A stretch of DNA of 49,619 bases from the NCBI RefSeq assembly GCF_015163655.1, contig NZ_JADEUF010000014.1, forward strand, positions 1 through 49,619. Reading direction: 5' to 3'. Shown here piece after piece: positions 13,038 through 38,519 of this stretch. The stretch's first letter is position 1, and each line of letters starts with the position of its first letter. Origin of the DNA: Xenorhabdus griffiniae (GTDB lineage Bacteria; Pseudomonadota; Gammaproteobacteria; Enterobacterales; Enterobacteriaceae). A program made the translations under genes and the position numbers. The notes beneath the pieces were generated by a model. That model was not told the DNA's origin, ran no database searches, and was given only the letters and a program-made list of their open reading frames with translations.

Positions 13038-14303
13038 ATGAGACGAATTATTTATGTTCTTACAAAGAGTTTCTTAGCACTTTTGATATGTTTTTCTAAT
13101 CCGGCTTTATCGCAATACCACGATTTCCCACATTATCATTACATGGAAGTGACTAAAGAGAGTGAAATCTATTCTTGGGTAGGTGAGCATATCATTAAGG
13201 TTGGTTTATTCAAGAAAGGGCAAGTCCTTAAAGTTGCTGAAGAAGAAGGGGAAGAAAATGGTCACTATGTGCTTCATTTCGGAAATGGAAGCGGTTATAT
13301 AGATAAAGAAAATTTAAAGGAAATTAAGCAATCTGCATTCCCCAGTGATCCCTTTAGCATTGATCCCTTTCACAAAAAAGCAGCCCAAAACTTGATGATA
13401 ATTAAGGCAGCTCAAGTTTATAGCACACCTGATACGGATAGCCAACCAATTGCCGTTTTGCGGGAAAATCTCCGCTATCCGGTTTTAGATAAATTACAAG
13501 ATCCTTTCCATCATACTTGGTACGAAATTAATTTGGGTGATCGATTAGGTTACATAAGTGATCGGGATGCTAAACTGGATAATGGTATTCCTTTATTAAC
13601 CTATCATCATATTCTTAAAGATGTTAAACGTTTTTTACATAGCTCAACAACAACATCCTTGACTGCTTTTCGTGAGCAGATGGCGTATTTGAAGCGAGCG
13701 GGTTATATCACAATTTCATTATATGAATTAGAAGGTTACCTAAATGGCTCTATTAACTTGCCAGCAAAAGTGGTTGGCTTAACCTTTGATGATGGGTTGA
13801 AATCCGTTTATCGTTATGCCTATCCCATTTTGAAAGAAAATGGTCAGAAAGCTACACTCTTTATTATTTCATCCAGAATTAAACGCCACCCGCAGAAATG
13901 GGAGCCGGATACCCTGCAATTCTTGAGTCTTCCAGAATTGTATGCCATGCAAGATGTATTTGATTTTCAATCTCATACCCATTTCTTGCATCGTTTTAGC
14001 AAGAAGAATCAACAACCCATACTATTAAGTCGGTCGTATCATAATATCCTGTATGATTTCAAACGTTCCAAACGGGTATTATCGCAATTAAATCCGCATG
14101 TGTTTTATCTCTCTTATCCTTTTGGTAGATATAATTTAAAGGCAATGAAAGCGGCTAAACAAGCTGGATTTCATTTGGCCGTTACCACGGTAAAGGGAAA
14201 AGTTAAATTGGGAGATAATCCCTTTTCTTTAAAACGGTTATATATATTGCGCACAGATCCGATTGAGAAAATGGCAAAAATGATTGCTAATAAACCTATT
14301 TAA
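13038..14303 (+). CDS. Exported PgaB-like polysaccharide deacetylase with two SH3-like domains
   Basis: 421 residues. A signal peptide (about 1-25, ending near ALSQ) suggests export. Two SH3-like segments follow (about 35-95 and 125-178, each ending in a GYI(D/S) motif), then a NodB-type carbohydrate esterase 4 domain (about 185-415). Motif 1 is TFDDG (249-253). Motif 2 is SHTHFLH (312-318), with metal-ligand histidines H313 and H318 five apart, the spacing of PgaB/IcaB enzymes. Motif 3 is YPFGRYN (360-366). It probably removes acetyl groups from an extracellular amino-sugar polymer such as poly-N-acetylglucosamine or a wall glycan; the substrate is unknown. The gene starts 18 bases after the rpoC terminator, so it needs its own promoter or read-through. 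No exopolysaccharide synthase gene is adjacent. Confidence 0.75.
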   Translation: MRRIIYVLTKSFLALLICFSNPALSQYHDFPHYHYMEVTKESEIYSWVGEHIIKVGLFKKGQVLKVAEEEGEENGHYVLHFGNGSGYIDKENLKEIKQSAFPSDPFSIDPFHKKAAQNLMIIKAAQVYSTPDTDSQPIAVLRENLRYPVLDKLQDPFHHTWYEINLGDRLGYISDRDAKLDNGIPLLTYHHILKDVKRFLHSSTTTSLTAFREQMAYLKRAGYITISLYELEGYLNGSINLPAKVVGLTFDDGLKSVYRYAYPILKENGQKATLFIISSRIKRHPQKWEPDTLQFLSLPELYAMQDVFDFQSHTHFLHRFSKKNQQPILLSRSYHNILYDFKRSKRVLSQLNPHVFYLSYPFGRYNLKAMKAAKQAGFHLAVTTVKGKVKLGDNPFSLKRLYILRTDPIEKMAKMIANKPI

Positions 14304-27436: not shown

Positions 27437-27602
27437 TTAACACAATGAAATTAATCAACTTGTTTGCAAAAGATGGGCGTTTCTCTACATTTGTTGGTCG
27501 TAAAGGAATGTTAATGTGTAAGTGACTTAATAGTGTCAAACAGAATTCAGGTATCAGTTTTATTCGTTGCTTTTATGCGTTACGTATGAGGGGAGAAATT
27601 TA

Positions 27603-30317
27603 ATGCTTATCCCATCGAAACTCAGTCGCCCTCTTCGACTCAATAATATGGTTATGCGGGAGCGCCTGTTGGAAAAGTTCAATGAAATTCAGGATCATCG
27701 ACTGGTATTGATAACCAGTCCCGCAGGGTATGGCAAAACGACCTTGATGTCACAATGGGCTGCCGGACAGGAACATCTCGGGTGGTATTCTCTTGATGAT
27801 AGTGACAACCAGCCAGAACGTTTTGCTAGCTATCTGATTGCAGCCATTCAGCAGGCAACGCAGGGACACTGTGTGAAAAGTGAGATATTGGCCCAGAAAC
27901 ATCAATATGCCAGTTTATCTGCACTGTTTGCGCAATTATTTATTGAACTTAGCGAATGGCAGCAACCGACTTTTCTGGTGATCGATGATTATCATCTGAT
28001 CGTGAATGGGATTATTCATGAAGCAATGCGCTTTTTTCTCCGCCACCAACCCGAAAATTTAACATTAGTGGTTCTGTCACGCCATTTGCCCTCGTTGGGA
28101 ATTGCCAACTTACGCGTGCGTGAACAGTTATTGGAGATTGATAGCCAGCAGTTGGCTTTTGATTATCAGGAAACCCAGCAATTTTTTGCCAAGCGGTTAG
28201 CCAATCCATTGGCGCCTGAACACTGCGAACAGTTATGTAATGACGTTGCTGGGTGGGCAACGGCCTTGCAACTGATTGCCCTTTCTGCCCGTCAATCCGG
28301 TAATACGACTGAAAGTTCAGCCAAGCGCCTTGCGGGAATTAATGCCAGTCATCTTGCTGATTACCTTGTGGATGAAGTGTTAAACCGAGTGGATCAGAAG
28401 ACACGGAATTTCTTGTTGCATAGTTCTATTCTGCGTTCCATGAATGATGGGCTGATTAATTGCCTGACGGGAGAAGAAAACGGTCAACAACGTCTGGAAG
28501 ACATTGAACGGCAGGGGTTATTTATTCAGCGAATGGATGATTCTGGTGAGTGGTTTTGTTTTCATCCCTTGTTTGCTTCATTTTTGCGCCAACGTTGCCA
28601 ATGGGAAATGGCAGCAAAATTGCCCGAATTACATAGAGCAGCGGTGCAAGGATGGCTGATGCAGGGATATCCAGGGGAGGCGATTCATCACGCTCTGGCA
28701 GCAGGAGATACTATCTTGTTACGGGATATTTTGTTGCAACATGCCTGGGAGTTATTTAACCACAGTAAACTTTCCCTATTGGGGGAGTGTATGAATGCAC
28801 TGCCGTATGAACAATTACTGGAAAGCCCTCGCCTGGTACTATTGCAAGCGTGGCTGGCGCAAAGCCAGCATCGTTACTATGAGGTAAATGCATTATTGAA
28901 TCAGGCAGAGCAATCACTAAGGCAGAAGCAAATCGCCATAGAGCCGGAATTACTGGCAGAGTTTGATGCTCTGAGAGCGCAAGTGGCGATGAATGATGGG
29001 CGCCCCGCAGATGCCGATGTTTTGGCCGAAAAGGCGTTAGCGAACTTACTTCCAAATAATCAATATGGCCGTATTGTGGCGATGTCAGTAAAAGGAGAGG
29101 TATTGCATTGCCATGGTCAGTTGGTCAGCGCATTGGCATTAATGAAGCAAACCGAGCAGCTTGCCCGCCTTTGTCATGTTTATCATTATGCTTTATGGGC
29201 GTTATTGCAACAAAGTGAAATTTTACTGGCACAAGGTTATTTGCAAGCGGCTTATGATACCCAGTCCCATGCTTTTGATTTAATCCGTGAACAGCATCTG
29301 GAGCAGTTGCCGATGCATGAGTTTCTATTGAGGATCCGTTCACAACTTTTATGGTGTTGGGCTCGTATTGATGACTCAGAAGAGGCCGCGCGTCAAGGGT
29401 TGGAAGTGTTGGCCAATTACCAGCCACAGCAGCAATTACAATGTCTTACCCAACTGGCGAAATGCTCTTTAGTTCGGGGTGATATTGATAACGCTCGCCG
29501 TTACTTAACCCGTTGTGAAAATTTACTGAGTAATGGACAGTATCACCGCGATTGGCGAACAAATACTGACGAGTTGCGTGTCATTATTTGGCAGATTCTG
29601 GAAGATAGTGATTCCTTGACTCAATGGTTGTTACAGGCAGAACGACCAGAGAGCTTTTGTAACCATTTCAATCAAAATCAATGGCGCAACATTGCACGGG
29701 CTAAAATCTTACTGGATCAGCATGAGGAAGCTGAATCTATTCTGGTGAAACTGAATGAATATGCCAGAAAATTGGCATTGGTCAGCGATTTGAATCGTAA
29801 TCTGCTGTTGTGTAATTTGCTTTATTGGCAGCTTGGACGTAAGGCAGAGGCTCAGGATGTTTTGATGGAAGCCTTGAATTTGGCTAACTGTACAGGCTTC
29901 ATCAGCCATTTTGTTATTGAAGGTGAGTTGATGGCGTTGCAATTGCGCCAGCTTATTCAACTGAATATCTTGCCTGAAATGGAACAACATAGAGCACAGC
30001 GTATTCTTCGGGAAATCAATCGACAGCATCGGCATAAATTTGCCCATTTTGATGAAACGTTTGTAGAACAATTGCTCACTCATCCTGACGTACCTGAGCT
30101 TATCCGTAATAGTCCACTGACTCAGCGTGAATGGCAGGTGCTAGGGTTAATTTATTCTGGTTACAGCAATGATCAAATTGCTACAGAACTGGATGTCGCA
30201 GCGACCACGATAAAAACGCATATACGTAATTTATATCAAAAAATGGGAGTTGCTCATCGACAAGAGGCGATTCAGCAGGCCCAGAAATTAATGCGAATGA
30301 TGGGATTAGGGGTTTAA
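27603..30317 (+). CDS. malT: MalT, ATP-dependent activator of the maltose regulon
   Basis: 904 residues, against 901 in E. coli, starting [10 protein letters not shown] with GAGGGGAG just upstream. In-frame codons before 27603 are not family sequence. A STAND ATPase of the LAL class: the nucleotide-binding domain has Walker [10 protein letters not shown] (39-47) and Walker B region [11 protein letters not shown] winged-helix and TPR-like maltotriose sensor domain follow. The C-terminal LuxR-type helix-turn-helix is [20 protein letters not shown] and onward. Maltotriose and ATP drive its assembly on mal boxes. It diverges from malPQ. No terminator is evident after the stop. Confidence 0.97.
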
Positions 30318-30553
30318 TTATTAATTTCTAAATGTAATTTGTCCTGCATTTAATATAATTAATAGATATTAATGAATAACTATATGATTTTTAAAATTTA
30401 AATTAAATTTTAAATTTGCTTAATATTTTTTATGGTATTTTCGTGATCGAAATAAAATTTGGATGTGCTTAATCTAGTCTCATCACAGTAGGTAGGGTTT
30501 TTCGTTGTTTTATATAACGAATCGTTTAATGTAACTAATAGTGGTGAGGCATT
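30318..30553. other. AT-rich leader upstream of the accessory cluster
   Basis: 236 bases without a gene. It is strongly AT-rich and contains a TATATAA stretch (30511-30517) and a ribosome-binding site GTGAGG (30543-30548) before the aminotransferase. I find no MalT core (GGATGA or GGAGGA) on either strand and no convincing -35/-10 pair. The cluster therefore does not look MalT-controlled, although it follows malT. Confidence 0.4.
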
Positions 30554-31807
30554 ATGGAAAATAAAAACCATCTTGAAAGCATGCTTTCTCGTTTTATCGG
30601 TCATGGCCCTTATTTGATCATTGATGGTGAAAAATATATTGACGCGGCATCGGGAACTTTTAATTTGCCGCTCGGCTATACAAATCATCGGATTGCAGAA
30701 AAACTGAAACAACAGATTGATAGATGTACACATTTAAGCTCGGCTTATACACGTGAAATGTCACAATATATTTTAAGTAAATTAATTAAATATACACCTG
30801 AAGGCGTCGATCGCATCTGGCTGCGAGATGTTTCTGGATCGGGGGCAGTTGAATGTGCTATCCGCATAGCGCAAAAATCAACGGGACGCTCAGGCGTTAT
30901 TTCACTTTTCCTTGCTCATCATGGGCAATCTCTTGCTACAGCTCAAATTTCTGGCAATGCATTCAGAATTAAAGACTTCCATATAAATATTGATGGTTCA
31001 ATAAAAATTCCTGCGCCAGCCAGTGTCCTGGCAGGGCAATCGCAGCCGAGCGAAGAACAATTTGTCGATTTAGAACAGTTTATTCAATTAGGCTCTAATG
31101 ACAATATTGCATGTCTGATTATTGAACCGATTCAGGGGAATGGTGGCAACATGGTTTTCCCTGTGGCTTTCTACCGGAAGCTTAGAGAAATCTGTCACCA
31201 GCATGGCATTATCATTATTGCGGATGAAGTACAAACAGGTTTTGGCCGTACAGGTACGTTCTTCGCATCGACAGGTTATGCCAAAGAATTGGAGCCAGAT
31301 ATCATCGTCTTTGCCAAAGGTGCAGGGGGTGTCGGTATTCCAACAGGGGGGGTATTGATGCGTCATTCACTGGATATCCTGGAATCATTCGAACATTCCA
31401 GTACCTCTGGTGCTAATCCGCTCTCTTTAGTTGCCCTCAATGAAATCATCGACATTATTGAAGATGATCACGTTTTGGAAAATGTGCAACAAAATGAAGC
31501 CTATCTGCGTGATGGTTTATTGAAATTACAGGAGCAATATCCCGAAATCACGGGAGTAAGAGGTGTGGGATATATGTATGGTTTTGACACACCAAACCCA
31601 GATTTTGCAGCGCAGGTGATTGCTACTGCTAACCGTCATCACTTGATCTTGCGTGGCTCTCGTTATGGTAAAGGCCGGGCAATCAAAGTTCGCCCACCAC
31701 TGATTTGTACACAGGAACATTTGGCAGAAATTCTCCATAAACTGGAACTGACTTTCTCAGAATTAACCACTCTCGCACAGATACATAAGGAGGCGGTATC
31801 ATGTTAG
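30554..31807 (+). CDS. Class III PLP-dependent aminotransferase, GabT1-like (putative sugar-phosphate transaminase)
   Basis: 417 residues, complete fold type I. Seen: SGSGAVECA (94-102) for phosphate binding, HHGQ (122-125), EPIQGNGG (191-198), DEVQTGFGRTG (224-234) with D224 for the pyridine nitrogen, and the Schiff-base lysine K255 in FAKG. The residues near the N-terminus (SGTFNLPLGY, 33-42) and C-terminus (HLILRGSRYGKG) are not those of typical ArgD or GabT. They resemble what I recall of GabT1, the Bacillus enzyme that aminates fructose-6-phosphate in azasugar synthesis. Known of the class: an amino group moves from an amino acid to a carbonyl. Inferred: the acceptor is a ketose phosphate. 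The next gene overlaps its end by seven bases, so the two are translationally linked. Confidence 0.7.
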   Translation: MENKNHLESMLSRFIGHGPYLIIDGEKYIDAASGTFNLPLGYTNHRIAEKLKQQIDRCTHLSSAYTREMSQYILSKLIKYTPEGVDRIWLRDVSGSGAVECAIRIAQKSTGRSGVISLFLAHHGQSLATAQISGNAFRIKDFHINIDGSIKIPAPASVLAGQSQPSEEQFVDLEQFIQLGSNDNIACLIIEPIQGNGGNMVFPVAFYRKLREICHQHGIIIIADEVQTGFGRTGTFFASTGYAKELEPDIIVFAKGAGGVGIPTGGVLMRHSLDILESFEHSSTSGANPLSLVALNEIIDIIEDDHVLENVQQNEAYLRDGLLKLQEQYPEITGVRGVGYMYGFDTPNPDFAAQVIATANRHHLILRGSRYGKGRAIKVRPPLICTQEHLAEILHKLELTFSELTTLAQIHKEAVSC

Positions 31808-32862
31808 CACTTAAATATCATCAAACCTGGGATGTTGAAATTCAGCAAGTTGAACCTTTATCTTGCACTGAACCCGATGATGTTGTCGTTGATATTGCAG
31901 TGTGTGGTATTTGTGGCACGGATGTGGGCATTATCACGGGTGCTTATCCTGTTGCAATTTCAGGAACTACTTTGGGGCATGAAACCACTGGTGTGGTATC
32001 CCAAATTGGCAGTGGTGTTACTCAATTTCAGGTGGGTGATCGTGTTGTTGTTAACCCAACTTATTTTTGTGGGCATTGCCGCATGTGTCAGACAGGTAGT
32101 CCTAACCATTGTGAGAGAAAACTGGGAACAGAAGCCGGGGTTTCTTATGATGGCGCGTTCGCAGAGCAATATTTGGCAAAAGAAAATTTGCTTATCAAGC
32201 TGGATGATCATGTCAGTATGGAGGAAGCCTCACTGACTGAACCACTAAGCTGCACAATAACGGGCGTGGATAAACTGGGGATCTCTCATACTAATATTCG
32301 TGCGGCAGTGGCAGGTGCTGGCCCGATGGGGATGCTGTACATTTGGGCGTTGCATGAGCGGGGTGTAAAAGCCTTTATGGTCGAAAAGAATGAAAACCGA
32401 ATCCAGTTTGCAAGAAATAATTTGCCGCCGGAATGCCAGTTGTATTCTGACTTTAATGAAGCATTAATGCAGGAATATGGTGATACGTCAGCCCTGATTG
32501 ATTTATGTGTGGATACGACGGGGCAGTTGACTGAATATATTTTTGATCATCTGGCACCGGGTGGAAAATTATTAAATGTTGCGTTGAAAGATAAACATGC
32601 CAATTTGGATATTATGAGAATTGCAGATAAAAGCCTTTCAGTAATAGGTTCCATTGATTCCCTGAATAATAGTTTTGAACGTGCCTATGCCATGATCCGG
32701 GATGGTGTAATCCCTGTTAAGCGTTTTATCAGCCAGATTTTTGATTTCAAAGATTACCAGCAAGCTTTTCTGACTGTCGGCTGTGATATTGCATTGAAAA
32801 CGCAAGTTCCTCTCAGTGCACCAAACTGCAAGGTATTAATTCGTATTTCTGATCTAAAATAA
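31801..32862 (+). CDS. Zinc-dependent medium-chain dehydrogenase, GutB1/sorbitol-dehydrogenase-like
   Basis: 353 residues. Catalytic zinc ligands C38 (in CGICGTD), H60-E61 (in GHE) and E147 are present. So are all four structural-zinc cysteines (C90, C93, C96, C104). The Rossmann motif GAGPMG is at 172-177. These features place it among polyol and alcohol dehydrogenases that use NAD(P). In Bacillus azasugar synthesis GutB1, of this family, oxidises the terminal hydroxyl of an amino-polyol so that it cyclises; the same step is proposed here. The ATG overlaps the aminotransferase gene and AAGGAGG precedes it. The HAD gene follows 25 bases later. Confidence 0.72.
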   Translation: MLALKYHQTWDVEIQQVEPLSCTEPDDVVVDIAVCGICGTDVGIITGAYPVAISGTTLGHETTGVVSQIGSGVTQFQVGDRVVVNPTYFCGHCRMCQTGSPNHCERKLGTEAGVSYDGAFAEQYLAKENLLIKLDDHVSMEEASLTEPLSCTITGVDKLGISHTNIRAAVAGAGPMGMLYIWALHERGVKAFMVEKNENRIQFARNNLPPECQLYSDFNEALMQEYGDTSALIDLCVDTTGQLTEYIFDHLAPGGKLLNVALKDKHANLDIMRIADKSLSVIGSIDSLNNSFERAYAMIRDGVIPVKRFISQIFDFKDYQQAFLTVGCDIALKTQVPLSAPNCKVLIRISDLK

Positions 32863-32887
32863 TGGATTATTTTGAAGGACGACTTCG

Positions 32888-33544
32888 ATGAATAGATGCA
32901 ATGTTATTTTTGATATCGACGGAGTTATTGTCGATAGTGAACAACTGCATTTTGATGTATTGCTTGATGTCTTAAGTAATGAATTAGGAGAACAGGCACC
33001 TACTCAAATAAGTAATATCCAACCTCAGCAATTAATTGGACTAAGTTTGGTGGAAACCTTAGATAAAGTTGGTGTTCCTCCCACAATGCATCAAGATATT
33101 ACCGAGAAAATTATTTCGCGTTACCAGGAAAAATTGTCTGTACGCTATTTGCGTCCCGGAGTTACTGATTTAATTGCTGCCTTACAACAAGATGGCACTA
33201 AATTTGGATTTGTTTCTACCGCGCCACGTAATGTGTGTCTGGCCAATCTTAGTTTGTTGGATCTACATGAACCACCGGCTTTGATTTCTGGCGATGATGT
33301 GGAAAGAACTAAACCCTTCCCTGATCCTTATTTGGCTATGCTGAAATTGAAAAAGATGGATGTTCAGCAAACGTTGGTGATTGAAGATACCGATTTGGGG
33401 ATCGCGGCGGCAAAGCAGGCGGGTATTCCGTGGATATATGCCTGGCCCCATGCATTGTCAGTAGCAGAGCAGTATGAACAGGCTTCCTGTGTTATTGAGA
33501 AATTAATGGATATTCCCCAGTTTTCAGGAACAAATATAAAGTGA
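32888..33544 (+). CDS. HAD-family sugar phosphatase (beta-phosphoglucomutase-like)
   Basis: 218 residues, a subfamily I HAD enzyme with a helical cap (about 20-85). Motif I is FDIDGVIVDSE with nucleophile D9 and acid/base D11. Motif II serine lies in VSTAPRN, motif III lysine in RTKPFPDP, and motif IV is IEDTDLGIAAAKQAG. Such proteins dephosphorylate or isomerise small sugar phosphates. Next to an aminotransferase and a polyol dehydrogenase, the likely job is to remove phosphate from an amino-sugar-alcohol phosphate before oxidation, replacing the inositol-monophosphatase-type Yktc1 of Bacillus. AAGGACG precedes the ATG. Confidence 0.7.
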   Translation: MNRCNVIFDIDGVIVDSEQLHFDVLLDVLSNELGEQAPTQISNIQPQQLIGLSLVETLDKVGVPPTMHQDITEKIISRYQEKLSVRYLRPGVTDLIAALQQDGTKFGFVSTAPRNVCLANLSLLDLHEPPALISGDDVERTKPFPDPYLAMLKLKKMDVQQTLVIEDTDLGIAAAKQAGIPWIYAWPHALSVAEQYEQASCVIEKLMDIPQFSGTNIK

Positions 33545-33569
33545 TTTTTTATTGAAGACCATTATTTGG

Positions 33570-33604
33570 CGCTTTCCGCCAGAACGGGTGGAAAGCGTTG
33601 TTTT
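33570..33604 (+). terminator. Terminator after the HAD gene
   Basis: CGCTTTCC (33570-33577) pairs with GGAAAGCG (33590-33597), with further pairing inside, and TTGTTTT follows. It splits the cluster after the three enzyme genes, so the transporter and DUF1349 genes may be expressed at a different level. Confidence 0.65.
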
Positions 33605-33643
33605 AAAGGGTATGGTTTGAAGGAATAGTTTGGAGGAGTCAAA

Positions 33644-34795
33644 TTGTCTGAAGAATATGCAGTCTCTTCAATAAAGCAGCCTATCATGGCAACGCGAATT
33701 TCGTTTTTTATTGCAGGATTCAGTATTGCGAGCTGGGCGCCGTTGATCCCATTGGTGAAGGAACGACTGGGTCTGGATGATGGTTCAATGGGGCTTTTGA
33801 TACTGGTGTTTGGTATTGGTTCTTTCATTATGATGCCAATAGCGGGAATGTTGGCAACTCGCTTTGGTTGCCGGAAGGTTTTTACCTTTTTTGCCTTGTT
33901 AGCTGTTTTGATATTACCCGGGCTAAGTGTGTTCTCAGCTCCGTTGACATTGGCTTGTGCTTTGTTTGTCTTTGGGATGGGAATTGGGGCGACAGATGTG
34001 GTGATCAATATCCATGCGGTCAATATTGAGAAAAGAGTACATCAACCGATTATGTCGGGTTTTCACGCATTATTCAGCCTGGGGGGAATTGCCGGAGCCG
34101 GTACTGTCAGCCTATTGTTGTTTTTGGGGATCTCACCATTTCAGGTCACCCTTGCCGTAGGGATATTCGTTATCCTGTTATTGTTGCCAACATGGAATGG
34201 CATGTTGGATAACGCCGAAACGGAGGAAACGCCATTTTTTGCCTTGCCTCGTGGCATTGTTATTCTGATTGGTTCCCTCTGTTTTGTGGTTTACTTGATG
34301 GAAGGCTCCATGCTGGATTGGAGCGGGATCTTATTAAGTAGTGTGCATAATATGAGTAGCCATCAGGCGGGTTTTGGCTATACGCTGTTTGCTATCACCA
34401 TGACTGCGGGGCGATTTTTGGGTGATAAAATTATTGCAGCATGTGGATATCGGCGCGTATTTTTAGGCAGCGCGATTTTGGCGACGTCAGGTTTTGTCCT
34501 GATCTATCTGGCAACCAGCACGATTCAATTGGGAATTTCTTTCCTGATGATTGGGGCGGGATTATCCAATTTGGCGCCAATGTTTTTCACTGCTTCAGGC
34601 CAGCAGAAGGTGATGCCTGATGCGTTGGCAGTTTCTGCCGTTTCTACGATGGGATATTCAGGGATTTTGCTTGGGCCAGCAATTATTGGTGGTTTGGCAC
34701 ATCAGGTAACATTACATGGTGCTTTTGCCTGTATTGCTGTGCTTTCCCTTTCATTGTTAGCGGGATATGGTTTGATTAATCCCACCAGAAAATAA
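33644..34795 (+). CDS. Major facilitator superfamily transporter, YbjJ-like
   Basis: 383 residues and about twelve membrane segments in two halves. The loop after the second segment carries an MFS-like basic motif (ATRFGCRKVF). The overall pattern, with GIGATDVVINIHAVNIEKR after segment four, resembles E. coli YbjJ-type permeases. Translation probably starts at TTG 33644, which has an excellent GGAGGAG five bases upstream. The substrate is unknown. In this setting it could export a product of the upstream enzymes or import a precursor. A terminator lies between it and the HAD gene; the DUF1349 gene follows 14 bases later. Confidence 0.75.
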   Translation: MSEEYAVSSIKQPIMATRISFFIAGFSIASWAPLIPLVKERLGLDDGSMGLLILVFGIGSFIMMPIAGMLATRFGCRKVFTFFALLAVLILPGLSVFSAPLTLACALFVFGMGIGATDVVINIHAVNIEKRVHQPIMSGFHALFSLGGIAGAGTVSLLLFLGISPFQVTLAVGIFVILLLLPTWNGMLDNAETEETPFFALPRGIVILIGSLCFVVYLMEGSMLDWSGILLSSVHNMSSHQAGFGYTLFAITMTAGRFLGDKIIAACGYRRVFLGSAILATSGFVLIYLATSTIQLGISFLMIGAGLSNLAPMFFTASGQQKVMPDALAVSAVSTMGYSGILLGPAIIGGLAHQVTLHGAFACIAVLSLSLLAGYGLINPTRK

Positions 34796-34809
34796 CAGGG
34801 TAAATATTG

Positions 34810-35406
34810 ATGAATTTGCAGCAATGCCATTGGTTGAATGAACCTGCTTTATGGCGGTGTCAGGATAATGAACTTCATGTCACGACAGACAATAAAACCG
34901 ATTTCTGGCGTGATACATGGTATGGTTTTCAGCGTCATAGTGGCCATGTATTTGGTGGCTATGTTGATGATTTTAAAATTGAAGAAGGTTTTACTTTCCA
35001 GTTTTGTATCGAAGGCCAGTTTGAACAATTATATGATCAGGCTGGTGTTATGTTGTTGGTGGATGAACAACATTGGCTAAAAGCGGGCATTGAACATTCT
35101 GATGGACAGGCAACTATCGGCAGTGTATTGACAAATGGCTGTTCTGACTGGGCTATGGGGATCTTTCCCGGTAATCCAGAAAAGTTTTGGCTACGGCTGA
35201 CTTACCATGATGGGGCTATCAGGTTGCAGTATTCTACAGATGGGGTGACATGGCCGTTACTGAGATTGTCTCCTTTTACCGTTGACAGTCAGCGGATTTT
35301 TGTCGGGGCGATGTGTTGCTCACCAGAACGTGAAGGATTGCAGGTGAGGTTTTCCGATTTTTGTCTCACGTCATCGTTGAAAAAGCACCTGCATGATTTA
35401 AGTTAG
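34810..35406 (+). CDS. DUF1349 protein (concanavalin-A-like fold), possible carbohydrate-binding
   Basis: 198 residues from ATG 34810; a TTG three bases earlier is less likely. No signal peptide. The central pattern DTWYGFQRHSGHVFGG, then YDQAGVMLLVDEQHWLKAGIEHSDG, then WLRLTYHDGAIRLQYSTDG matches the DUF1349 beta-sandwich family. These proteins are predicted to have a concanavalin-like fold and are often near sugar metabolism. No catalytic site is known. It is the last gene of the accessory cluster and is followed by a terminator. Confidence 0.7.
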   Translation: MNLQQCHWLNEPALWRCQDNELHVTTDNKTDFWRDTWYGFQRHSGHVFGGYVDDFKIEEGFTFQFCIEGQFEQLYDQAGVMLLVDEQHWLKAGIEHSDGQATIGSVLTNGCSDWAMGIFPGNPEKFWLRLTYHDGAIRLQYSTDGVTWPLLRLSPFTVDSQRIFVGAMCCSPEREGLQVRFSDFCLTSSLKKHLHDLS

Positions 35407-35421
35407 CTTTCTATTCGTTAT

Positions 35422-35460
35422 AACCATAATGTGCATCTTCCTGCACATTAATGGTTCTTT
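35422..35460 (+). terminator. Terminator after the DUF1349 gene
   Basis: AACCATAATGTGCA (35422-35435) pairs with TGCACATTAATGGTT (35442-35456, one bulged A) and is followed by CTTTT. It closes the accessory cluster. Confidence 0.75.
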
Positions 35461-35489
35461 TGCCTATGTATAGTCATATTTTTGCATAT

Positions 35490-35558
35490 TATACCAATCT
35501 AACTTCAAGGTGCGTGTGATATCGTGTTGTAAATTGCAGCTTGAAGTTTAATGTGTAT
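35490..35558. repeat. Palindromic intergenic repeat, copy C (69 bp, lacks inner hairpin)
   Basis: Starts TATACCAATCTAACTTCAAG, identical to copy A, and ends with the same AGCTTGAAGTTTAAT segment. The central palindrome is missing. The gap falls between TGA triplets, so copy C looks like an internal deletion of a copy-A-like element. It lies between the convergent DUF1349 and thiH genes. Confidence 0.75.
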
Positions 35559-35602
35559 ATAAGAAGGTATGCCGCGATTGCAGCATACCCAAATACTTAA
35601 AA

Positions 35603-36727
35603 TTATCGGCCTAGATAATTGTCCCAGTCTTTCCAGACGGGCTGTAAACCCAATTTAATCAAAGATTCAGCAACCTGAAAAACAGAACGATTATCGTGGG
35701 GAGCGAATTGTTCCAACTCGTGGTGCTCATCGGCATAACCGCCTGGCTGGGTTTTTGAACCTGCACTGATATTGTTGATCGCGAGAGGAACAACGTGATC
35801 ACGGAAAAAGGGTGATTCACGGGTGGACAGGGACAGCTCTACATCCGGTGCCAATAGGCGAAAAGCGCAAATCAGTTGTACCAGTTCAGCTTCATTCATT
35901 AAAGAAGCGGGTTCTATGCCACCTGCACAGGGGCGCAGGCGTGGAAAAGAGATGGAGTAACGGCTTTTCCAGAACTGTTTTTGCAGGAAAAAAAGGTGCT
36001 CAGCCACCATATAACAATCTGCTCGCCAATTGTGGGATAACCCAATCAAGGCGCCTAGCCCAATTTTGTCAATGCCCGCGCGACCAAGGCGTTCCGGCGT
36101 TTCTAATCGCCAATGAAAATCCTGTTTTTTGCCTTTCAAATGATGCAGTTGATAACTGGGTTGATGATAGGTTTCCTGATAGACCATCACGCCATCCAAT
36201 CCCAATGTTTTCAGTTCAGCATATTCCTCTTGCGCCAATGGCTGGACCTCCATTGAGACAGAGCTGAAATGGCGGCGGATCAGGGGAAGATAGCGACGAA
36301 AATAATCCATACCGACTTTGTTTTGGTGTTCCCCTGTGACTAGCAGAATATGCTCAAATCCCCGTTTTTTCAGCGCGAGGCATTCCGTCTCAATCTCCTG
36401 TTCATTAAGTGTCTTGCGCTTAATGTGATTGCTCATAGAGAAACCACAATAAGTACAGTCGTTGGCACACAGATTAGAAAGGTAGAGTGGGATAAAAAAT
36501 CCCACGGTATTACCAAAACGCTGGCGAGTCAGTTGTTGTGCACGTTGGGCGAGCGGTTCAAGATAAGGCAGTGCAGCCGGAGAGAGCAGGGCCATAAAGT
36601 CATCCAGCGTCAAGCGCACATTGTTTATTGCACGTTCAATGTCACGCGATGTTTTACTGTTGATGCGTAGGATGATGTCATCCCAATCCAGTTGCTGCCA
36701 GTGTTGGCTGAATGTTCGGTTTGTCAC
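35603..36727 (-). CDS. thiH: 2-iminoacetate synthase ThiH
   Basis: 374 residues, against 377 in E. coli. A radical SAM enzyme that splits tyrosine to dehydroglycine (2-iminoacetate) for the thiazole ring. The 4Fe-4S cysteines are C87, C91 and C94 in [10 protein letters not shown]. The partner is ThiG. Start GTG 36727 overlaps the thiG stop by four bases (GTGA), implying coupled translation. Last gene of the thi operon. No oxygen-tolerant ThiO replacement is present. Confidence 0.95.
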
Positions 36728-37494
36728 AGTACCTCCAGAAAATCGGTCAGTGGGCTGGAAGCCTCAGCATGGGATTTCTGGCTGGCAACGCCTGCCTGGT
36801 GTGAAAGTTCGCCGGCTTCAATGGCAGCTTTGAATGCCTGCGCCATCTTAACGGGATTGCGGGCAACAGCGATGGCGGTATTAACCAGCACAGCATCCGC
36901 CCCCATTTCGATAGCGGTTAGCGCATGGCTCGGTGCGCCGATTCCGGCATCTACAACAACGGGCACGTTAGCCTGTTCGATGATGATTTGTAAAAAATCG
37001 CGGGTCAGTAATCCCTTATTGGAGCCGATAGGGGCGCCCAATGGCATCACGGCAGCGCAGCCGACTTCTTCCAAGCGGCGGCACAGGACAGGATCAGCGC
37101 CGCAATAAGGCAGAACGATAAATCCTTCTTTAACTAGCTGCTCCGCCCCCTTTAATGTCTCAACGGGATCGGGCAGCAGGTATTTTACATCAGGGTGGAT
37201 CTCCAATTTTATCCAGTGAGTTCCCAATGCTTCCCGTGCCAGGCGAGCGGCGAAAATAGCTTCCTCCGCTGTTTTGGCGCCAGAGGTATTGGGTAGCAGT
37301 TTGACACCCAACTGTTGCAATGGGGCAAGAATGCCATCGTCATTATTGCCGTGGAGATCGAGGCGTTTCATTGCCATTGTGACCAGTTGGCTGCCAGAGG
37401 CACGGATCGCGTCGATCATTAATCCTGCATTGGCAAACTTGCCTGTTCCGGTAAATAAACGGGATTGGAAGGTGGTATCTGCAATTTTTAACAT
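36724..37494 (-). CDS. thiG: Thiazole synthase ThiG
   Basis: 256 residues, a TIM-barrel enzyme. It condenses deoxyxylulose-5-phosphate, 2-iminoacetate and sulfur from ThiS thiocarboxylate to the thiazole phosphate. The lysine that forms the imine is K96 in WIKLEIH. The phosphate-binding segments [13 protein letters not shown] and [11 protein letters not shown] are conserved. It lies 19 bases after thiS and overlaps thiH. Confidence 0.96.
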
Positions 37495-37513
37495 AAATTA
37501 ACCTCCGGCAATA

Positions 37514-37744
37514 TCAGCCACCCGCAATGGCCTGAAACAGCAATATAGAGTCCCCGTCATTAATCTGATGGGTTTGCCATTCTGAACGCGGAATAATGGT
37601 TTGATTGATAGCCAACGCAGTACCTGATTGCGGGCGTTCTATATGTTCCAGCAATTGATGTTCCAGAAATTGATGTTCCAGAAATTGTTGCACCGTCATG
37701 GGCGCATTCAGTGTCACTGGTTGATCGTTGACGATAATGTTCAT
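37514..37744 (-). CDS. thiS: Sulfur carrier protein ThiS, lengthened by a tandem repeat
   Basis: 76 residues, against 66 in E. coli. A ubiquitin-like carrier whose C-terminal Gly-Gly (FQAIAGG) is adenylated by ThiF and thiocarboxylated. The extra residues come from a repeated FLEHQ unit in the first helix region (about 21-34: FLEHQFLEHQLLEH), encoded by a 15-bp tandem repeat. The frame is intact and the core (ALAINQTIIPRSEW) is conserved, so the protein is probably functional. ATG 37744 overlaps the thiF stop by four bases (ATGA). Confidence 0.93.
   Translation of the reverse strand: MNIIVNDQPVTLNAPMTVQQFLEHQFLEHQLLEHIERPQSGTALAINQTIIPRSEWQTHQINDGDSILLFQAIAGG
37643..37687. repeat. 15-bp tandem repeat, three units, inside thiS
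   Basis: Three head-to-tail units, ATGTTCCAGCAATTG once and ATGTTCCAGAAATTG twice (37643-37657, 37658-37672, 37673-37687). They are in frame, so slippage would add or remove five residues without a frameshift. Confidence 0.95.
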
Positions 37745-38519
37745 GCGACTTCTTTTCCTAACCGTTTTTTATCGGTTTGTCTGGTAGCGCCACAAATTGG
37801 GCACTGTGATGAACGGGTAAGCTGTAATGTGCTCCAGCTTTGCTGTTTGCCATCAAACAGTCGGAGTTTTCCGTTTAAGGGAGAAGAAAGGCCCGCCAGC
37901 ATTTTTATGGCTTCCAGTGATTGCAAGGTGCCGATGACTCCAACAATAGGGCCTAAGATACCGGCTGTCCGACAATTTCGGTGGGGTTCTTCTTGGTTAG
38001 GATAGAGGCAGGCATAGCAACCGTGCTGGTAAGGGGGAGTCAATACCATTAATTGTCCACTAAAGCCGACGGCACTGCCGCTGATAAGTGGTTTGTTTTC
38101 TGCAATACAGGCGGCATTGATGGCATGGCGAGTTGCCATGTTGTCACAGCAATCTAATACCAGATCGACTTGACTGACAGCATTAACCAAAGATTCACGA
38201 TCTTGCCGCTCAGCGAGGGCTGTGATATTGATTTGCGGGTTTAACTCAGCCAGTTGTTTTGCGGCTAATTGGGCTTTGTTGGCCGGAATATCTACAGTGC
38301 GATAGATAATCTGGCGTTGCAGGTTTGAGATATGCAATTTGTCATCATCTGCCAGATAAAGGTTTCCCACCCCTGCTGCCGCGAGATAGAGCGCAGCCGG
38401 TGATCCTAATCCACCCAAACCGACAACCAACACTTTGCTGGCTTTTAATTTCTCTTGCCCTACCGGACCAATGTCTTCCAGCAGTAATTGACGGCTGTAA
38501 CGCATAAATTCTTGATCGT

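What the first reader, a model, noticed from the sequence alone, without database searches (positions are those of the whole stretch)
30554..33544. Aminotransferase, zinc polyol dehydrogenase and HAD phosphatase: candidate azasugar (nojirimycin-type) pathway
Seen: three adjacent genes, the first two overlapping by seven bases, encoding an intact class III PLP enzyme (K255), a zinc medium-chain dehydrogenase (C38/H60/E61/E147) and a HAD sugar phosphatase (D9, D11). Known: in Bacillus amyloliquefaciens gabT1, yktc1 and gutB1 encode the same three activities. They convert fructose-6-phosphate by transamination, dephosphorylation and terminal oxidation to a cyclising amino sugar. Inference: this cluster makes an amino sugar or azasugar. 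The SGTFNLPLGY start and RGSRYGKG end of the aminotransferase fit GabT1 better than ArgD or GabT. An azasugar would inhibit glycosidases, for example insect trehalase or competitors' amylases, and would be new for this locus.
Basis: partly seen in the sequence, partly recalled or inferred. Interest (0 to 1): 0.8.

Follow-up and report, generated by a model that had tools for sequence, protein, structure and literature searches.

The report
Predicted azasugar-making operon in Xenorhabdus
A five-gene operon in an insect-killing bacterium very probably makes and exports a nitrogen-containing sugar mimic of the kind that blocks sugar-cutting enzymes; this type of cluster had already been predicted for the genus, but no product has been shown.

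Summary
The three genes are real, intact and co-conserved. They open a five-gene operon: aminotransferase, zinc dehydrogenase, HAD phosphatase, MFS transporter, DUF1349 protein. It follows malT in 17 of 17 named Xenorhabdus loci examined; the same order sits on two Erwinia plasmids. The aminotransferase does not group with the genome's own GABA, ornithine or other class III enzymes but with those of a Streptomyces and a Paenibacillus polymyxa cluster. The P. polymyxa one fits the published azasugar consensus; its neighbour is annotated GutB1. Best explanation: an azasugar (iminosugar) pathway: ketose-phosphate amination, dephosphorylation, oxidation, spontaneous ring closure, export. The product is unknown. 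The idea is not new: Beal and Horenstein 2021 (PMC8382821) list 31 Xenorhabdus and 25 Photorhabdus putative clusters. Corrections: Bacillus YktC1 is an inositol-phosphatase-family enzyme, not HAD; order and phosphatase here match Paenibacillus/Chitinophaga. Added here: the five-gene unit, clade-specific active-site residues, and two lineages that lack the four pathway genes at this locus but keep DUF1349.

The parts
30554..31807 (+). class III PLP aminotransferase, predicted ketose-phosphate aminotransferase (first pathway step)
   Evidence: PF00202 2.5e-80; group of 34 rows apart from GabT, AstC, ArgD, BioA, AptA, two HemL-like and L050 at 100/99; Q125, R138, N196 and RGSRYG invariant 34 of 34
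31801..32862 (+). zinc medium-chain dehydrogenase, predicted amino-polyol dehydrogenase (GutB1-like)
   Evidence: ADH_N plus Glu_dehyd_C; catalytic and further cysteine ligands invariant in 8 aligned; 41% identical to the dehydrogenase annotated GutB1 beside the P. polymyxa aminotransferase
32888..33544 (+). HAD-family phosphatase, predicted to remove the sugar phosphate
   Evidence: PF13419 5.1e-28; D9, D11, K142 and D167 invariant in 7 aligned
33644..34795 (+). MFS transporter, predicted exporter of the product
   Evidence: PF07690 3.9e-21; follows the HAD gene in 32 of 34 loci examined, in two pieces in one of them
34807..35406 (+). DUF1349 protein; role unknown, possibly binding of the product
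   Evidence: PF07081 1.1e-62; profile matches solved proteins 3o12 and 3mep and weakly GH43 xylosidases; two orthologues also match the GH43 C-terminal concanavalin-like domain weakly; in 30 of 34 loci
35427..35450 (+). terminator-like hairpin after DUF1349, possible operon end
   Evidence: pattern match only; 12 terminator-like sites in the scanned region against 8.3 (sd 3.0) in shuffles
27567..30317 (+). malT, upstream neighbour (context, not part of the pathway)
   Evidence: NF003420 at 1525.8 bits against a cut-off of 537

Best explanation
A five-gene biosynthesis-and-export operon for an azasugar (iminosugar). Inferred steps: (1) the class III aminotransferase puts an amino group on the keto carbon of a ketose phosphate; (2) the HAD enzyme removes the phosphate; (3) the zinc dehydrogenase oxidises the freed hydroxyl to a carbonyl; (4) the amine attacks that carbonyl and the ring closes by itself; (5) the MFS protein exports the product, a glycosidase inhibitor. 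DUF1349 is an accessory protein whose fold resembles sugar-binding domains. Shown here: gene content, co-inheritance, intact active sites, group membership. Not shown: substrate, ring size, product, target.
For: Five-gene order in 17 of 17 named Xenorhabdus loci, 4 of 4 probable Photorhabdus loci and two Erwinia plasmids. Aminotransferase next to dehydrogenase in 34 of 34 loci (L077 and L078 are the same plasmid). In 72,556 plasmid records, aminotransferase (E up to 1e-60) and dehydrogenase (E up to 1e-45) hit the same 6 records and no others. The P. polymyxa aminotransferase of the same group matches all 16 fixed consensus positions and its neighbour is annotated GutB1. The position of the Arg of GabT/AstC/ArgD is Gln, and that of their switch Glu is Asn, in 34 of 34 (residue roles recalled). 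Aminotransferase, dehydrogenase and HAD or inositol phosphatase together are the published signature of azasugar clusters, commonly with an MFS gene.
Against: The published motif is met only 9 of 16 in the window protein. No Bacillus GabT1, YktC1 or GutB1 or Chitinophaga sequence could be fetched, so the link runs through a P. polymyxa plasmid whose strain is not itself a proven producer. ValM, an aminocyclitol-pathway enzyme, lies in the same published similarity cluster, so the group alone does not prove an azasugar. Outgroup branches in the tree are long. None of the titles or abstract starts listed reports such a product from Xenorhabdus or Photorhabdus.
Confidence: 0.77

Rival explanations
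1. The operon makes another amino-sugar product: an acyclic amino polyol, or an aminocyclitol-like compound as in validamycin, rather than an azasugar.
For: ValM of the validamycin pathway falls in the same published aminotransferase network; a relative on a Streptomyces plasmid has a glycosyltransferase in place of the phosphatase and a glycogen synthase-like gene upstream.
Against: The genome assembly shows a single DHQ-synthase-family match, in a 365-residue frame that I judge AroB-like by length and sequence (judgement, no profile run), so no second sugar-phosphate cyclase was found; the dehydrogenase and HAD phosphatase families are those of azasugar clusters.
Confidence: 0.12
2. A catabolic route for an imported amino sugar or amino polyol, run in the opposite direction, with the MFS protein as importer.
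For: All three enzymes belong to families with catabolic members; the operon lies beside the maltose genes.
Against: No sugar kinase, regulator or binding protein among the five genes; a phosphatase is wasteful in catabolism (inference); plasmid-borne in some hosts and lost in some lineages like a niche trait.
Confidence: 0.08
3. An ordinary amino-acid aminotransferase (ArgD, GabT, diaminobutyrate type) beside unrelated genes.
For: Best NCBIfam hits are ArgD/GabT-like families (25 of 69 shown).
Against: All 25 shown scores are far below their curated cut-offs, e.g. argD 216 against 410, GABA 184 against 507, dat 185 against 402; separate group at 100/99; own GabT, ArgD and AstC genes lie elsewhere in the genome; active-site differences in 34 of 34.
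Confidence: 0.03

Closest known systems
Paenibacillus/Chitinophaga-type azasugar three-gene cluster (Beal and Horenstein 2021, PMC8382821)
   Same: Order aminotransferase, dehydrogenase, HAD phosphatase; MFS nearby; a DUF1349 gene also lies beside the P. polymyxa plasmid cluster, on the other strand
   Different: Aminotransferase and dehydrogenase each 41% identical to those of the P. polymyxa plasmid; CxxC part of the consensus lost; HAD 28% identical over 193 residues; MFS 24% over 211 residues, E 8e-6
Bacillus amyloliquefaciens/velezensis gabT1-yktC1-gutB1 (1-deoxynojirimycin)
   Same: Same three activities and aminotransferase superfamily
Pseudomonas syringae gsn cluster (galactosyrin, PMC11844564)
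   Same: Five genes: PF00107-type dehydrogenase, phosphatase, a protein of unknown function, a transporter and one more enzyme
   Different: gsn uses a RibD-like reductase on a purine-pathway amine instead of an aminotransferase; whether GsnD is DUF1349 could not be tested
ValM/ValN of validamycin
   Same: ValM is in the same published aminotransferase network
   Different: ValN was not on the published GutB1 networks and ValM/ValN lack a neighbouring phosphatase; no second cyclase found in this genome

Membership tests
bacterial azasugar three-gene cluster (3GC) | class III aminotransferase (PF00202), zinc dehydrogenase (PF08240/PF00107/PF16912) and phosphatase (PF13419, PF00459 or PF12710) as neighbours | tested here: met
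   PF00202; PF08240 and PF16912 above cut-off, PF00107 just below; PF13419; adjacent
bacterial azasugar three-gene cluster (3GC) | aminotransferase groups with those of known azasugar producers (40% network) | tested here: inconclusive
   41% identity to and one group with a P. polymyxa plasmid aminotransferase; strains with proven product were not available
bacterial azasugar three-gene cluster (3GC) | consensus SGNXFRXXXFPNXXXXXXXLXVPXPYCXRC | tested here: inconclusive
   9 of 16 fixed positions in the window; enterobacterial rows 8-11, Streptomyces 11, P. polymyxa 16; the paper says the consensus also misses some 3GC members, so it is not a required feature
bacterial azasugar three-gene cluster (3GC) | production of an azasugar | not testable with these tools
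   needs mass spectrometry
acetylornithine, GABA or diaminobutyrate aminotransferase | score above curated family cut-off | tested here: not met
   216/410, 184/507 and 185/402 bits
acetylornithine or GABA aminotransferase | substrate-binding Arg and glutamate switch (residue roles recalled) | tested here: not met
   Q125 and N196 in 34 of 34; R and E in the genome's own GabT, AstC and ArgD
Bacillus-type DNJ cluster | order aminotransferase, inositol-type phosphatase, dehydrogenase | tested here: not met
   order aminotransferase, dehydrogenase, HAD phosphatase

The most novel reading that the evidence does not exclude
A portable five-gene iminosugar cassette shared by insect-associated and plant-associated enterobacteria, whose DUF1349 gene is a product-binding self-protection factor. 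It is kept intact in two Xenorhabdus lineages that lack the four pathway genes at this locus, as an orphan immunity gene would be.
Probability: 0.15. Interest if true: 0.65.

Novelty: new member of a known kind. Interest (0 to 1): 0.42.

Why it matters
If the product is confirmed, nematode symbionts that kill insects would be shown to carry, in most species sampled (25 of 29 genomes), a glycosidase inhibitor pathway. That would be a direct test of what azasugars are for in nature, since insect blood sugar is largely trehalose (general knowledge) and the related galactosyrin of P. syringae is reported as a virulence metabolite. The case also offers an untested accessory protein (DUF1349) that recurs in these clusters and was listed in print among phosphatase annotations.

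Tried and rejected
Published-motif test alone: inconclusive (9 of 16), so tree, residues and synteny were used as well. A class III aminotransferase from an uncultured Granulosicoccaceae (L050, 29% identical) lies outside the group; L051, a 57-residue match, was not examined. A MalT-driven operon: no MalT-box-like site was seen by eye in 30318-30553 (the box is recalled), and promoter-like matches do not exceed shuffles, 18 against 20.6. No Rfam match in 29000-38500. A phylum sample gave 2 of 398 genomes with the aminotransferase at E up to 1e-100 (own included) and a class sample 1 of 369 (own) with the dehydrogenase at E up to 1e-60, so these gave no further cluster types. I tried to learn whether GsnD of P. 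syringae is DUF1349; the passages seen do not say. A dehydrogenase search of plasmids at E up to 1e-33 added 20 records at 28-34% identity in Leuconostoc, Weissella, Streptomyces and Peribacillus, not opened. DUF1349 as a subfamily peculiar to the cluster was rejected: 274 plasmid records hold a relative, and in the four non-cluster ones I opened (of 274) no aminotransferase/dehydrogenase pair lies within 5 kb. The group statistic printed for the operon-less rows compares only labelled rows and was not used.
Full report
OBSERVATION. Pfam gives Aminotran_3, ADH_N with Glu_dehyd_C, and HAD_2. The named catalytic residues are present and invariant in the relatives aligned. dN/dS is about 0.04-0.14 over the three genes and nine relatives (the saturated L067 value for the aminotransferase left out; many synonymous distances exceed 1, so the ratios are rough). 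Five Xenorhabdus matches flagged with a stop end there naturally.

WHERE IT IS. The genome belongs to Xenorhabdus: 17 of the 19 loci found in named genomes are Xenorhabdus, 84-97% identical in the aminotransferase. Upstream lie maltose genes, among them malM, lamB, malK, malF, malQ, a phosphorylase and malT; downstream, on the other strand, thiH and thiG.

IT IS A FIVE-GENE UNIT. After the HAD gene come an MFS transporter (33644-34795) and a DUF1349 protein (34807-35406), with gaps of 99 and 11 bases. In one search I examined 35 loci and set one aside (L050, an outgroup). Of the other 34 (33 distinct, since L077 and L078 are the same plasmid), aminotransferase and dehydrogenase are adjacent in 34. 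Orthologous HAD and MFS genes follow in 32; the exceptions are Streptomyces, with a glycosyltransferase and a MATE transporter, and Paenibacillus, with a diverged HAD and an upstream MFS. In one of the 32 (L074) the aminotransferase and the MFS gene are each in two pieces. DUF1349 is present in 30, in Paenibacillus on the other strand. The four without it (L069, L070, L071, L076) are other enterobacteria; in G177 (L076) a broken remnant of DUF1349 lies beside the operon and an intact copy elsewhere. In the 17 named Xenorhabdus loci malT precedes the five genes in 17 and thiH is seen downstream in 16; in the 17th (L045) the contig ends first.

DISTRIBUTION. 25 of 29 genomes of the genus (own included) carry the aminotransferase at E up to 1e-80, and 0 of the 50 others in that sample. 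In a family sample 18 of 392 genomes and 9 of 154 genera do at E up to 1e-75. The same five genes in the same order sit on plasmids of Erwinia tracheiphila and Candidatus Erwinia impunctatus (two of the three Erwinia records opened), so the set can move as a cassette. Aminotransferase and dehydrogenase hit exactly the same 6 of 72,556 plasmid records.

WHAT THE AMINOTRANSFERASE IS. The 25 curated family scores shown (of 69) are all far below cut-off. In a tree with the genome's own GabT, AstC, ArgD, BioA, AptA and two HemL-like proteins (named, except L008, named from its likeness to L007) and L050, the 34 cluster aminotransferases form one group at 100/99; the outgroup branches are long, and no diaminobutyrate enzyme, Bacillus GabT1 or ValM was available. 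Within the group are the Streptomyces and P. polymyxa proteins. The position of the Arg of GabT/AstC/ArgD is Gln, and that of the switch Glu is Asn, in 34 of 34; R138 (SGNAFR) and RGSRYG are invariant in 34 of 34. That these Args hold the sugar phosphate is inference. The published azasugar consensus fits P. polymyxa at 16 of 16 fixed positions, Streptomyces at 11 and the window at 9, with gaps allowed: the enterobacterial branch lacks the cysteine-rich part.

WHAT IS IN PRINT. Beal and Horenstein 2021 (PMC8382821; parts 1-4 of 5 read) define the azasugar three-gene signature, list 31 Xenorhabdus and 25 Photorhabdus putative producers, describe the aminotransferase-dehydrogenase-HAD order of Paenibacillus and Chitinophaga, and suggest that the MFS gene may transport the azasugar. 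Their Table S1 could not be read, so that their Xenorhabdus entries are this locus is inferred: it is the only such aminotransferase in this genome (the other seven matches are at most 33% identical). They name PF07081 among HAD-like phosphatase annotations; in Pfam it is DUF1349, and its profile resembles solved proteins 3o12 and 3mep and weakly GH43 xylosidases (also for two orthologues), so I think it is unlikely to be a phosphatase. Galactosyrin (PMC11844564, parts 1-3 of 6 read) shows a related five-gene iminosugar cluster that supports growth of P. syringae in plants. Searches for Xenorhabdus or Photorhabdus with iminosugar, azasugar, nojirimycin, trehalase or glucosidase-inhibitor terms (titles and abstract starts only, apart from PMC8382821; one search showed 15 of 75 papers and one search showed 25 of 528) showed no report of a product.

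LOSS THAT SPARES DUF1349. Of the four genus genomes without the aminotransferase, two (G005, and G024 at 82% completeness) show no malT match at E up to 1e-150 and no DUF1349 match at E up to 1e-15. In the other two, G001 and G004, an intact DUF1349 gene follows malT directly, and the four pathway genes are not found in the stretch read (genome-wide only the aminotransferase was sought). ThiH comes next in G004, and after about 3.4 kb with three other open frames in G001. In the MalT+ThiH+ThiG tree the two lie in separate well-supported groups, each with operon-bearing members (23 of 25 loci, two dropped for missing thi genes); the exact neighbour of G001 is weaker (86/91). So at least two independent losses kept DUF1349, unless the operon was instead gained repeatedly at this site. 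The operon tree agrees broadly with that tree but places X. hominickii differently, so some transfer within the genus is likely. Retention fits a protective role, or equally a separate household role: DUF1349 relatives are common elsewhere (274 plasmid records).

MECHANISM. By analogy with the published pathway: amination of a ketose phosphate, dephosphorylation, oxidation, spontaneous cyclisation, export. Which ketose, which ring size and which target enzyme are open.

VERDICT. A real, probably functional azasugar operon carried by most of the genus sampled; the prediction for the genus is already in print. The added value is the five-gene definition, the clade-specific residues, the plasmid-borne copies and the DUF1349 pattern.

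Noticed in passing
   Followed up: partly
L069 (G383): The aspartate that normally holds the PLP ring nitrogen (D224 in the window numbering; role recalled) is Tyr in this relative, 1 of 34 rows, suggesting decay or a sequencing error.
   Followed up: no
L080: Streptomyces plasmid variant: aminotransferase, dehydrogenase, glycosyltransferase, DUF1349 and MATE transporter, with glycogen/starch synthase and epimerase/dehydratase genes upstream and no phosphatase annotated in the stretch; possibly a glycosylated relative of the product.
   Followed up: no
L094:8156-8944: In G001, between DUF1349 and thiH, one open frame has weak similarity to ADP-ribosyltransferase families (Pfam Pertussis_S1 and Scabin-like); described only.
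   Followed up: no
window 13038-14303: A polysaccharide deacetylase-family gene (PF01522) upstream of the maltose genes.
   Followed up: no
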